A stretch of 64,000 bases of DNA from Verrucomicrobiaceae bacterium (GTDB lineage Bacteria > Verrucomicrobiota > Verrucomicrobiia > Verrucomicrobiales > Verrucomicrobiaceae), in the NCBI GenBank assembly GCA_027489965.1, contig JAIXZA010000137.1, forward strand, positions 1-64,000, read 5' to 3'. Shown here piece by piece: positions 11,222 to 14,281 of this stretch. Every line of letters begins with the position of its first letter. The first letter of the stretch is position 1. The notes under the pieces are model-generated. The model made no database searches and had not been told where the DNA came from. It saw only the letters and a list, made by a program, of their open reading frames with translations. A program made the position numbers and the translations under genes.

Positions 11222-14200
11222 TCACGCCGGTTGAGGAAACGATTTGGGAAGCTTTTTGGGGAACGCCTGAATCACGTTTCCGGCTTTCTTTCTGGCTTCG
11301 GCGCGAGCCATTCGTGTCGCGACCGCCTTTTCTGCTGCCGCGGTGCGATTCAGAACGATTCTCTTAACAGCCCGGGTTTCTCCCATTCGAACACCAGCCG
11401 CCAATGCACCGGCACCGACAAGCGCCGTTGCTGCCGCCCCTGCTCCGATGAGAAGCTTACGCTGGCCGTCTTTCTTTTCATGCCATTCGGCTTGCCTGCG
11501 CATCCTGCGGCGAGAACCTGGCGCAAACACACGGGCCGAACGTCCGCGAGGATCGCGCACATCCCAGCCAGCGTATTCAGCCATCTGGTCCAGTTTGATG
11601 ATCTTGCCTTTGGAAGAAAGACCGAGCGACCCCGCGATTTTGTCCATCGCACGACCCGTTGCGTTCTCAATCTTCTGTCGTCCGAGCCTCACCCGAGCTT
11701 CCGTTTTTTTGACCAGCCGCGCCGTTGGAGTAGTTGGGTTCACCCGAGCATAACGTCGAAGCAAAACGCCTCCTCCAACAGCCCCGGCAATGCTGGCTGT
11801 GGTGACAGCGTTTTGAAACCAACTCTTCTCCCACTCACGCTTCTTTGTGCGTCCTGCAGCGTCTTTCTGCCTTGGAGCTCCGCGAAGTTCATCGAGAGCA
11901 TCGCGAGTCAATCCACCGGTTCGCTGAACGGTCACGCGGGCTTTTTTCGCATCCCGCCATAACGAGTTTGCAAGCTGCGGACTCGAAGCTTTCCACTGCG
12001 ATCCATCTGCGTTCACGTAGGTCATTCCCCGTGCGTATCCTTCGACCGGATCGGCGTATCTTTTCCCGCTCTGCCAACGCGGTTGATCGGAGCGTCCGAG
12101 TTGAATCAGGCGACCTTGCATTGAAAATCTGACCCGCTTTGCAAGCCTCTTGAATGTCGGGAATGTCGTGAGTTGAGCCTTGAGCGATTTCAAAATCCGA
12201 ATGCCCTTGTTCTGGGCACGAACGACGTTTCCAGTCGCGGCCTCCGCTTGCTTTGCGGCCTTGGCTACCCGGTATCCCGCATAGCCAACTCCGGCCCCAG
12301 CGGTCAAAGCGCCGGCACCGATCGCGCGATCACGGTTTTGGCGAGAATCAAATCGGATCGTACGACGTTCTTTGATCGAGAATCGGGTTTTCTTTCCCAT
12401 GTCCTTTCTGAGGTTCCGAATGGAATCCACTTGCTGGCCTTCGTCGGCTCCCTGAGCTGCCCCGACCGCTCCACCGGCAACCGTGCCGATTGCTGCTGTA
12501 ACCGGCAATCCGCCGCGACGAGCTAGTGCTGCGGGACGCCATTGCTTTGCAAGCCCGCGCATCACTCGCTGACCAGCTTTGGTTCGAGAAGCAACAACTC
12601 CGGCTGTCAGACCGGTTGCAGCTCCGACGATGCCGCCGCCAATGGCTGCACGCTTTGTAAATGGAGCTCCTTCATCTTTTCTTGGTTCACCGACAATCCG
12701 AGATCCCACAAGGGCACCACCGCCAACGATTGCTGCTGAAAGCCCAGCCCCGGTTGCGATAGCCTTGCCTGCGCTTTTTAGCGATGTCCCACGCCTGAGT
12801 AACGAAACGCCGCCAAGCAATGCACCAGACGCCGCACCAGACAACGCGGCTCCGACGTAGGGGTTGAGTTGCTTTTTCTCTTTGAACAGAATCACCCGAG
12901 CTTTGCTTTCGCAGTTCCAACGCTTGAGCGCGGCTCCCTTGGGCGTAAGCTTTCCGTCCTTGCTGGTCGGTCCAGAAACCCCGCTCATACGAGCACAGAA
13001 GCTTTTTCGCCGGTTGGCGGCTTTGCTGCCGGGTTTGAGCTTCGACGGATCCTTGGTAACCGGACGTTTCAGGTTGCTTCCGTTCTCACGGTTGTATGCC
13101 TTTCGAGCGCTGTCATTGAGCCCCCCGGTCTTGGCATGGCGCTTTTTGTTGTAGCCGTGGAACGGCTTTTCGAAAGAGATAATCCGTCCAGATGCAGAGA
13201 GCTTGAACTTCCGTTTGACCAGCTTTGCGGCCCCGACCGACGCAACGCCTGCGCCAGCAACGACCGGCAGTGACTCCACTTTTTTGCCCTCACGAGTGCG
13301 TTCTCCGTACGGATCCCTCCCCGACTTCGTTGCCTGACGGATCGCCAACACCCCGCCCGCGCCAGCGGCAGCGCCCGCCGCGGCACGGGTCAGAGTGCGG
13401 CCTCGGCGAGTGATGAGCGCACCCGCGAGAGCTCCAGCGGCACCAGACCGCAAAATGTTTGCATCGCGACGATCAAGATCTTCGTCACGGATCTTCTTTA
13501 CATATCGGTCTCGAGCAACGCGACCGGTGAGCGGAATCCCCGCTTCGTATCCAATCGGACGCTCGAACCGGATCATTCCTTTACTGCGGCTTGAAAACGT
13601 GGTCCGCACCCTGCTTTGAATTTTATGCAATTTTTCAAGAACATTGGGGTTAATTTCTCCAGTCACCGGATCCGATATCACTTTCCCGACGATCTCATCT
13701 TCCATCAGTGTGGCTCCGGCATTGTAGCGAGCTGCGATCCGCGAATACTTGTGCTTTGGATTGAGTTTGTTGGCTAAATACGCGATCGGGCCTCGGCGCG
13801 GAACTTCACGCACAAGAGCCTGCTTTCGATTCAAGATGTAGCGGTTGCCAATTCCCCTGTGAACCTCGACTTCTTCATTTATAGGTCGCTCAAGCTTGAT
13901 GATGCGCCGGCCCTTCACCGCGAGTTGGAATCGAGCGGGAGTGAGGTCCAGCACATTGAGCGACATTGAGACGTTTCCTTTCATGGCCTTGGCGAGATAG
14001 TGGTGACCGTCAACAATCCGGTCGTTTTGGATCAGAATGAACTTGGAGCCCCGACGGGCTTTGAGCTGAACGTGACGACGGCATTCCTTGCAGTCGGCGT
14101 CTTTGACGTTGGCCTTGGCGGTCGAGAGATTGTGCGGATCGGCTTTCGAGATCAGTTCCTTGGCCGTCATGCCATACCACGCGAACTTGGTGTCGGCCTT

Positions 14201-14281
14201 CGCTCCGGTGAATCGCTTCACGGTTTCGCGAACCTCTGCCGGCAGATCTTTCAGTTTTACGTCTTGGATGTAGGCGCTCAT
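11222..14281 (-). CDS. Large multi-module phage protein (ParB-like N-terminus; internal KSFCARMSGV module; seven tag repeats)
   Basis: 1019 aa; DRIVDGHHYLAKA (ParB-like); KTGGLNDSARKAYNRENGSNLKRPV...RRKSFCARMSGV...PKGAALKRWNC (normally a small standalone phage protein, DUF6321 as I recall); tags at aa 118, 227, 358, 455, 631, 716, 885. Confidence 0.8.
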   Translation of the reverse strand: MSAYIQDVKLKDLPAEVRETVKRFTGAKADTKFAWYGMTAKELISKADPHNLSTAKANVKDADCKECRRHVQLKARRGSKFILIQNDRIVDGHHYLAKAMKGNVSMSLNVLDLTPARFQLAVKGRRIIKLERPINEEVEVHRGIGNRYILNRKQALVREVPRRGPIAYLANKLNPKHKYSRIAARYNAGATLMEDEIVGKVISDPVTGEINPNVLEKLHKIQSRVRTTFSSRSKGMIRFERPIGYEAGIPLTGRVARDRYVKKIRDEDLDRRDANILRSGAAGALAGALITRRGRTLTRAAAGAAAGAGGVLAIRQATKSGRDPYGERTREGKKVESLPVVAGAGVASVGAAKLVKRKFKLSASGRIISFEKPFHGYNKKRHAKTGGLNDSARKAYNRENGSNLKRPVTKDPSKLKPGSKAANRRKSFCARMSGVSGPTSKDGKLTPKGAALKRWNCESKARVILFKEKKQLNPYVGAALSGAASGALLGGVSLLRRGTSLKSAGKAIATGAGLSAAIVGGGALVGSRIVGEPRKDEGAPFTKRAAIGGGIVGAATGLTAGVVASRTKAGQRVMRGLAKQWRPAALARRGGLPVTAAIGTVAGGAVGAAQGADEGQQVDSIRNLRKDMGKKTRFSIKERRTIRFDSRQNRDRAIGAGALTAGAGVGYAGYRVAKAAKQAEAATGNVVRAQNKGIRILKSLKAQLTTFPTFKRLAKRVRFSMQGRLIQLGRSDQPRWQSGKRYADPVEGYARGMTYVNADGSQWKASSPQLANSLWRDAKKARVTVQRTGGLTRDALDELRGAPRQKDAAGRTKKREWEKSWFQNAVTTASIAGAVGGGVLLRRYARVNPTTPTARLVKKTEARVRLGRQKIENATGRAMDKIAGSLGLSSKGKIIKLDQMAEYAGWDVRDPRGRSARVFAPGSRRRMRRQAEWHEKKDGQRKLLIGAGAAATALVGAGALAAGVRMGETRAVKRIVLNRTAAAEKAVATRMARAEARKKAGNVIQAFPKKLPKSFPQPA

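What the first reader, a model, noticed from the sequence alone, without database searches (positions are those of the whole stretch)
11222..14281. Polyprotein-like 1019-aa late protein divided by seven copies of a peptide tag
The same short pattern recurs at aa 118 (FQLAVKGRRIIKLERP), 227 (TTFSSRSKGMIRFERP), 358 (KFKLSASGRIISFEKP), 455 (WNCESKARVILFKEKK), 631 (KTRFSIKERRTIRFDS), 716 (RVRFSMQGRLIQLGRS) and 885 (SLGLSSKGKIIKLDQM). Rough consensus is [FL]S-x-x-G-R-x-I-x-[FL]-[ED]-[RK]-P. The spacers (85-176 aa) look like unrelated modules: a ParB-like domain, Gly/Ala-rich membrane-like modules, and one module that looks like a complete small phage protein normally encoded alone (KTGGLN...RRKSFCARMSGV...KRWNC). 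The gene lies between the portal and the head protease. This suggests a concatenated set of head-cargo or internal proteins, with the tag acting as a protease site or capsid-targeting signal.
Basis: partly seen in the sequence, partly recalled or inferred. Interest (0 to 1): 0.9.

Follow-up and report, generated by a model that had tools for sequence, protein, structure and literature searches.

The report
Tag-punctuated phage head-cargo polyprotein
A virus of Verrucomicrobiota bacteria carries a long protein built from eight unrelated pieces joined by the same short tag, and the tag recurs on other cargo-like genes and on the head scaffold of dozens of related viruses, so it is probably the label (and perhaps the cutting site) by which these viruses load many proteins into their heads.

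Summary
The gene is on the minus strand (11222-14281, 1019 aa). The protein belongs to a large family of modular proteins in Verrucomicrobiota phages (138 database hits, dozens of syntenic phage contigs). Core modules (C, E, G, H) recur with changing accessory modules, can swap order, and are split over several genes elsewhere, with tags at the junctions. The tag also occurs in neighbouring cargo-like genes and in the scaffold part of the protease-scaffold protein. It is absent from major capsid, decoration, tail and tape-measure proteins. Sister phages without the cassette have no tags and a shorter scaffold. The protease model matches T4 gp21 best. In one homologue the protease domain is fused to tagged modules; in eight, a polyvalent-protein pyrophosphatase (InPase) domain is. 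Best reading: a phage-type polyvalent head-cargo protein whose tags act like T4 capsid-targeting sequences, probably docking on the scaffold and possibly being cut by the prohead protease. Encapsidation, docking and cleavage are inferred, not shown. 'ParB-like' was not confirmed; the small phage-protein module is DUF6321. New variant of a known kind.

The parts
11222..14281 (-). modular 1019-aa protein, eight modules separated by seven tags
13928..14281 (-). module A (aa 1-118), conserved DGHH motif; no family found; internal copies in homologues are preceded by a tag or by its last residues
13889..13924 (-). tag 1 LAVKGRRIIKLE (aa 120-131), weakest copy, 7.0 bits
13562..13597 (-). tag 2 FSSRSKGMIRFE (aa 229-240), 18.2 bits
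13217..13552 (-). core module C (aa 244-355), GIPLTGRVARDR...DLDRRDAN, Gly/Ala-rich helices; module query found in 92 of 120 listed family proteins
13169..13201 (-). tag 3 LSASGRIISFE (aa 361-371), 15.4 bits
12911..13150 (-). DUF6321 module (aa 378-457), also a stand-alone or C-terminal domain in many marine phages
12881..12913 (-). tag 4 CESKARVILFK (aa 457-467), 13.4 bits
12398..12871 (-). core module E (aa 471-628), Gly/Ala-rich, DEGQQVDSIRN motif
12347..12382 (-). tag 5 FSIKERRTIRFD (aa 634-645), 15.4 bits
12095..12127 (-). tag 6 FSMQGRLIQLG (aa 719-729), 14.0 bits
11732..11956 (-). core module G (aa 776-850), KREWEKSWF motif
11588..11620 (-). tag 7 LSSKGKIIKLD (aa 888-898), 12.3 bits
11402..11575 (-). 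core module H (aa 903-960), GWDVRDPRGRSARVFAPGS, C-terminal module in most homologues
10411..11217 (-). 268-aa tagged neighbour protein
11101..11145 (-). tag RLISLAEKVDSIELA near the N-terminus of the 268-aa protein
10627..10671 (-). tag RLIFLAEKVDSIELS in the 268-aa protein; 41 nt of it are 93% identical to the other copy
9879..10466 (-). 195-aa tagged protein carrying the DPRPRN module
10341..10370 (-). tag-like RLIALSEKLD near the N-terminus of the 195-aa protein (only 4.3 bits)
10071..10103 (-). tag FCSKLESIELA before the DPRPRN module, 14.0 bits
8510..9763 (-). prohead protease-scaffold fusion, 417 aa (H66, H97, S117 invariant in 23 relatives)
9278..9304 (-). protease/scaffold junction GLFSEKVDT, resembling the first half of the tag
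8693..8908 (-). long scaffold helix (aa 286-357) that begins with tag-like sequence; missing in most sister phages without cargo
14278..15999 (-). portal protein (lambda family), upstream neighbour; no tags
6870..7832 (-). major head protein; no tags

Best explanation
The 1019-aa protein is a phage-type polyvalent head-cargo protein: several small basic proteins, many with Gly/Ala-rich helices, strung together. Each junction carries a short amphipathic tag that works like the T4 capsid-targeting sequence. While the prohead forms, the tags bring the chain, and the separately encoded tagged proteins, onto the core built by the protease-scaffold protein, most likely at its long coiled coil, whose start resembles the tag. 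When the prohead matures, the gp21-like protease probably also cuts at or near the tag, removes the scaffold and frees the modules, which leave the head with the DNA. Shown by sequence: modular structure, tags at junctions, tags shared with scaffold and neighbouring genes, absence from other virion proteins, co-occurrence with the cargo cassette, gp21-like protease, one protease-module fusion. Inferred: packaging, docking, cleavage, ejection.
For: Seven sites recovered blind. Conserved order gpW-portal-modular gene(s)-p195-protease/scaffold-decoration-head protein in viral contigs. Tags in modular proteins (136 hits vs 6.8 in shuffles), p195 (14 vs 0.8), p268 (5 vs 0.1) and other ORFs (79 vs 10.1), but 0 in head protein, decoration and gpW. 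Scaffold parts of long protease-scaffold proteins 27 vs 1.2 in shuffles, while coiled-coil-rich tape-measure proteins give 6 vs 4.8. Sister phages with the same portal, protease and head protein but no cassette have no tagged genes there and short scaffolds lacking the long helix. Modules are split among ORFs in other phages with near-identical [LF]SAKLRLRE[LF]A tags at the junctions. P0101 fuses the protease domain (aa 9-156) to tagged modules E and C in one 856-aa ORF. Some modules that start an ORF begin right where the internal copy's tag ends (M|DSRPRN vs REL|DSRPRN; M|SAYIQDV vs VEL|AAYIEDV). Protease model: T4 gp21 is the best PDB match (E 5e-4), then herpesvirus assemblins. The polyvalent-type InPase domain is fused in eight homologues. 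T4 and P1 precedents for N-terminal targeting peptides.
Against: No proteomics, no structure of a tag complex, no cleavage data. The tag has no single invariant scissile-looking pair: E at -1 in about half, and in the window lineage the residue before F/L is K, R, S, L or Q. Tags near C-termini (scaffold ...KLADA in one clade, L037 180-aa, L120 201-aa) fit docking but not cutting. The ORF-wide start-codon test was noisy: only 13 of 114 N-terminal families have a tag ending at the start codon. Co-occurrence of cassette and long scaffold may be a single evolutionary event; L086 has a coil-like scaffold but no tagged ORF found on a fragment. The full AlphaFold model is poor (mean pLDDT 57).
Confidence: 0.5

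Rival explanations
1. Docking only: tags are multivalent scaffold- or capsid-binding peptides, the protein is packaged and ejected as one intact 110-kDa chain, and nothing is cut at the tags.
For: Tag-like sequences lie inside the scaffold and at C-termini where cutting makes little sense; no conserved scissile pair; [quoted passage not shown]
Against: Tags sit at the junctions rather than anywhere; modules can be separate genes in relatives; protease fused to modules in P0101. Internal tags would be expected to decay after fusion if one were enough.
Confidence: 0.27
2. Cleavage only: tags are recognition sites of the prohead protease and have no targeting role; the polyprotein is a conventional protease substrate.
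For: Boundary position, protease-module fusion, the protease/scaffold junction resembles the tag, start codons of some modules fall right after the tag, gp21-like fold.
Against: Terminal tags on small separate proteins, C-terminal tags, and tag-like sequence in the scaffold coil.
Confidence: 0.12
3. The tag is mainly a shared linker, or a stretch of homology at which modules recombine, without a protein-level receptor.
For: In L011 the tag DNA is 78% identical between copies against 65% expected from the same residues with that locus's codon usage; two window copies are 93% identical over 41 nt.
Against: Tags diverged between lineages keep the same residue pattern, and tag-like sequences are enriched in the scaffold but not in tape measure or portal.
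Confidence: 0.07
4. The protein is not cargo: it is a structural or assembly component (for example an internal scaffold or neck protein) whose Gly/Ala-rich modules have an architectural role.
For: Conserved position between portal and protease; conserved core modules C, E, G, H in conserved order in most homologues.
Against: Accessory modules vary freely, including enzyme-type InPase domains; sister phages lack the gene while keeping portal, protease and head protein.
Confidence: 0.04

Closest known systems
Phage-type polyvalent proteins (Iyer et al. 2017, PMC5512222)
   Same: Large multi-domain phage proteins encoded among late head genes, fused InPase domain in eight homologues, predicted to be packaged and injected; the paper itself draws the analogy to polyproteins and lists Verrucomicrobia phages.
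   Different: In that paper processing is attributed to metallopeptidase domains embedded in the protein; the passages read describe no recurrent short tag at the junctions. Here the tag is shared with other genes and the scaffold, and the protease nearby is a gp21-like serine protease.
T4 capsid-targeting sequence and gp21 maturation system
   Same: Short N-terminal peptides (about 10 aa) bring several unrelated proteins into the prohead core and are removed by gp21 (PMC9958956); the protease here has T4 gp21 as best structural match.
   Different: T4 has one tag per protein at the N-terminus; here up to nine tags in one chain and tags on separate genes. Cleavage and targeting are untested here. 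No sequence homology between the tags was tested.
Phage P1 Dar proteins (PMC9024508)
   Same: Large antirestriction proteins inside the head; the N-terminal 30 residues of DarB direct a reporter to the capsid.
   Different: One N-terminal signal, no repeated internal tags reported, no consensus among Dar N-termini.
SPN3US / phiKZ giant-phage internal head proteins (PMC5694885, PMC10052503)
   Same: Several internal proteins with propeptides cut by a gp21-related prohead protease; two diverged paralogues keep identical N-termini.
   Different: N-terminal propeptides only; no tag-separated concatemer.

Membership tests
Phage-type polyvalent proteins | one polypeptide with 2 to 15 distinct domains | tested here: met
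   eight distinct segments, of which C, E, G, H, A and DUF6321 recur independently in homologues
Phage-type polyvalent proteins | contains domains catalogued in polyvalent proteins | tested here: inconclusive
   InPase PF18823 in eight homologues by precomputed annotation; five of them re-scanned at E 1e-42 to 1e-46 or, for a partial match, 1e-14 (P0069, P0070, P0087, P0082/P0023, P0100). In the window protein only DUF6321 was found; ParB-like, ART-like and zincin-like modules not confirmed
Phage-type polyvalent proteins | encoded among late virion genes of a portal-terminase phage | tested here: met
Phage-type polyvalent proteins | packaged in the virion and delivered to the host | not testable with these tools
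   needs virion proteomics
T4-like capsid-targeting sequence | short peptide shared by otherwise unrelated head-cargo proteins | tested here: met
   that the proteins are head cargo is inferred
T4-like capsid-targeting sequence | located at the N-terminus only | tested here: not met
   tags are mostly internal and sometimes C-terminal
T4-like capsid-targeting sequence | sufficient for encapsidation and removed by the prohead protease | not testable with these tools
   needs reporter packaging and N-terminomics
gp21/assemblin-like prohead protease (417-aa neighbour) | assemblin-like fold | tested here: met
   Foldseek: T4 gp21 5jbl E 5e-4, TM-score (target) 0.55; herpesvirus proteases next at weaker E-values
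gp21/assemblin-like prohead protease (417-aa neighbour) | conserved Ser and His residues fit for catalysis | tested here: inconclusive
   H66, H97 and S117 invariant in 23 relatives; geometry not measured
DUF6321 (aa 378-457) | Pfam gathering score | tested here: met
   54.9 bits against a cut-off of 28.5

The most novel reading that the evidence does not exclude
A tailed dsDNA phage uses a true virion polyprotein: one short tag, imitating the start of its own scaffold's coiled coil, both loads the chain of eight modules and the separately encoded cargo onto the scaffold and marks each junction for the gp21-like protease, so that cargo genes can be fused, split and traded between phages as interchangeable tag-module units.
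Probability: 0.33. Interest if true: 0.87.

Novelty: new variant of a known kind. Interest (0 to 1): 0.72.

Why it matters
How phages choose which proteins go into the head is understood for very few phages. Here a short readable tag occurs in the modular proteins of dozens of related phages, so a candidate cargo list can be read straight from sequence and tested with one reporter. If the tag is also cut, this would be a polyprotein strategy in tailed dsDNA phages, run by the same protease class that matures herpesvirus and T4 capsids. A transplantable tag would also be a tool for loading proteins into phage heads, and a guide to finding ejected effectors of unknown function.

Tried and rejected
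Rejected: chance motif; one continuous repeated fold (modules reorder, split and vary); generic coiled-coil explanation for the scaffold hits (tape-measure control). Led nowhere or weak: search of the genus and order of the host assembly for the protein (only the window itself); genome collection scan with module E (no hits), although the scan with the protease gave Verrucomicrobiota hosts; viral scans with the window's protease or portal alone; Pfam/PDB identification of module A as ParB and of the N-terminal module of P0002/P0004 as ADP-ribosyltransferase; PADLOC; solved-structure search with the full protein and with the protease profile (coiled-coil chance hits); the whole-protein AlphaFold model (low confidence; every tag overlaps a stretch below pLDDT 50, but 42% of all residues are below 50, so this is weak); within-genome tag similarity between genes, only slightly above other genomes (Wilcoxon p 0.02, genomes not independent); systematic start-codon alignment, noisy, 13 of 114 families. 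The test that tags avoid module cores (8 inside, 469 outside) is partly circular because the cores were cut between the tags of the window protein. P0101 was seen only as a predicted protein; its DNA was not retrieved, and the two viral relatives found (L127, L128) do not carry the fusion.

Full report
WHAT IS THERE. The ORF is on the minus strand, 11222-14281, 1019 aa, directly after the portal gene (14278-15999; lambda-family portal). Downstream come a 268-aa gene, a 195-aa gene, a tRNA-Met, a 417-aa protease-scaffold gene, a 196-aa protein in the position of a decoration protein, and the major head protein. The window is a 64-kb stretch of a contig of a 6.5-Mb assembly; the database entry of this protein lies on a 69.4-kb contig.

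THE TAG IS REAL. I trained a gapped tag profile on 119 homologues with the window protein excluded. From 172 non-redundant contexts the family consensus is [LF]-S-[AR]-[KR]-L-R-R-[LV]-[IKV]-E-F-[DGEA]. Conservation starts about ten residues before the F and falls off after it; the ten residues before the tag are basic and those after it polar or acidic.

THE FAMILY. A protein search gave 138 relatives with E <= 0.001, about 570 to 1760 aa. Four core modules recur: C, E, G and H. Queries for them hit 89 to 101 of the 120 listed proteins, although the Gly/Ala-rich queries cross-match each other somewhat. With non-overlapping assignment, 39 proteins read CEGH, others insert DUF6321 (D), module A, or the N-terminal module N, and nine have E before C. 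In viral contigs the order gpW, portal, modular gene(s), p195, protease-scaffold, decoration, head protein is conserved. In L003, L011, L012, L015 and L018 related modules are spread over several ORFs, with near-identical tags at the junctions, such as LSAKLRLRELA. So the modules are independent units that fuse and split.

TAGS OUTSIDE THIS GENE. In the window, the 268-aa protein has two and the 195-aa protein one clear and one weak copy. Across the first loci, modular proteins have 136 hits (6.8 expected from shuffles), p195 14 (0.8), p268 5 (0.1), other ORFs 79 (10.1), but major head protein, decoration, gpW and the tested tail proteins none. Some tagged ORFs lie downstream of the head protein (L015, L018, L020). 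The scaffold part of long protease-scaffold proteins has 27 hits (1.2 expected); tape-measure proteins, also coiled-coil rich, have 6 (4.8 expected). Many scaffold hits fall at the start of a long helix (for example LSALQKQVRELSARF), and one clade ends its scaffold with ...ARGIVKLADA or LSARGLIKLADA. The protease-scaffold junction in the aligned relatives reads roughly L[FL][ESQ]AK...VD, like the first half of the tag; this is a resemblance, not a test.

A NATURAL CONTROL. A scan with the protease profile found phages with the same portal, protease and head protein but no modular gene and no tagged genes there; their protease-scaffold proteins are mostly 282-320 aa and lack the long helix, whereas cassette-bearing phages have about 370-490 aa. 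This could be one evolutionary event. L086 has a coil-like scaffold and no tagged ORF on its 8.8-kb fragment.

THE PROTEASE. The AlphaFold model of the 417-aa protein (mean pLDDT 68, protease part about 70-90) matches T4 gp21 best (E 5e-4), followed by herpesvirus assemblins. H66, H97 and S117 are invariant in 23 relatives. In P0101 (856 aa) the protease domain is followed in the same ORF by the DPRSRN module, module E and module C with tag-like sequences between them. I could not retrieve its DNA; two viral relatives do not have the fusion.

WHERE MODULES START. For some modules the first codon of a stand-alone gene aligns with the end of the tag of the internal copy: M|DSRPRN (L016) against REL|DSRPRN (L039) and SIEL|ADPRPRN (window p195); M|SAYIQDV (window) against VEL|AAYIEDV (P0014). 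Others keep the tail of the tag (M-KELARGDFAIP) or a whole tag. A systematic count was noisy: 13 of 114 N-terminal families.

DNA LEVEL. In L011 the tag copies are more alike in DNA (78%) than the same residues with that locus's codon usage would give (65 +/- 2%), and the two copies in the window's 268-aa gene are 93% identical over 41 nt. Some tags therefore share recent DNA ancestry, consistent with modules moving together with their tag.

HOW IT PROBABLY WORKS. T4 is the model: several unrelated internal proteins carry a short N-terminal targeting peptide, join the scaffold core, and are trimmed by gp21 (PMC9958956). P1 DarB has an N-terminal packaging signal (PMC9024508). Phage polyvalent proteins are thought to be packaged and injected, and were compared to polyproteins (PMC5512222). 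Here the tag would bring a chain of modules, and separate tagged proteins, onto the scaffold, and the gp21-like protease would probably cut at or near the tags. Shown: structure, distribution and co-occurrence of the tag. Inferred: encapsidation, scaffold docking, cutting, ejection. C-terminal tags and the lack of a fixed scissile pair favour docking over pure cleavage; the junction position and the protease-module fusion favour cleavage; I give the combined model 0.5.

HOST. Protease relatives in named genomes are mostly Verrucomicrobiota (Spartobacteria, Verrucomicrobium sp. BvORR034, Akkermansiaceae, Verrucomicrobiales, Chthoniobacter), with one Planctomycetia and two short betaproteobacterial metagenome contigs.

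NOVELTY. Each ingredient (polyvalent cargo proteins, targeting peptides, gp21-like protease) is known. A recurrent tag at every junction of a concatenated cargo protein, shared with separate genes and the scaffold, was not found in the papers searched, which cover open-licence PMC papers only.

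Noticed in passing
L011:5617-12370, L015, L016, L018, L020: Low-complexity peptides such as NHRGHREHGG and TTEDTENTEG (apparently one DNA repeat read in different frames) sit at the 3' end of the portal gene and inside module junctions, often just before a tag end (GGVKEF).
   Followed up: no
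9789-9865: A tRNA-Met (cat) gene on the minus strand between the 195-aa gene and the protease-scaffold gene, inside the late head operon.
   Followed up: no
L120:6038-6640: In a Verrucomicrobium sp. BvORR034 contig, a 201-aa protein has a different tag version at both ends (DAELDKALTKF and EAELDQALTKF), which the family profile did not detect.
   Followed up: partly
L015:18092-20019, L018, L020, L047, L051: Tagged ORFs downstream of the major head protein (LAARSGRIVEF type), suggesting a second cargo block.
   Followed up: partly
L063, L064 (protease ORF, 460 aa): The protease carries an N-terminal extension with a tag-like sequence (FSAQISPVEF) just before the protease domain.
   Followed up: no
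L093-L116, L111: Sister phages without the cargo cassette have portal ORFs of 690-740 aa, and 1029 aa in L111, suggesting C-terminal extensions of the portal.
   Followed up: no
8693-8908: The start of the long scaffold helix looks like the tag itself (FKARIKSIELAEKE, 9.2 bits).
   Followed up: partly
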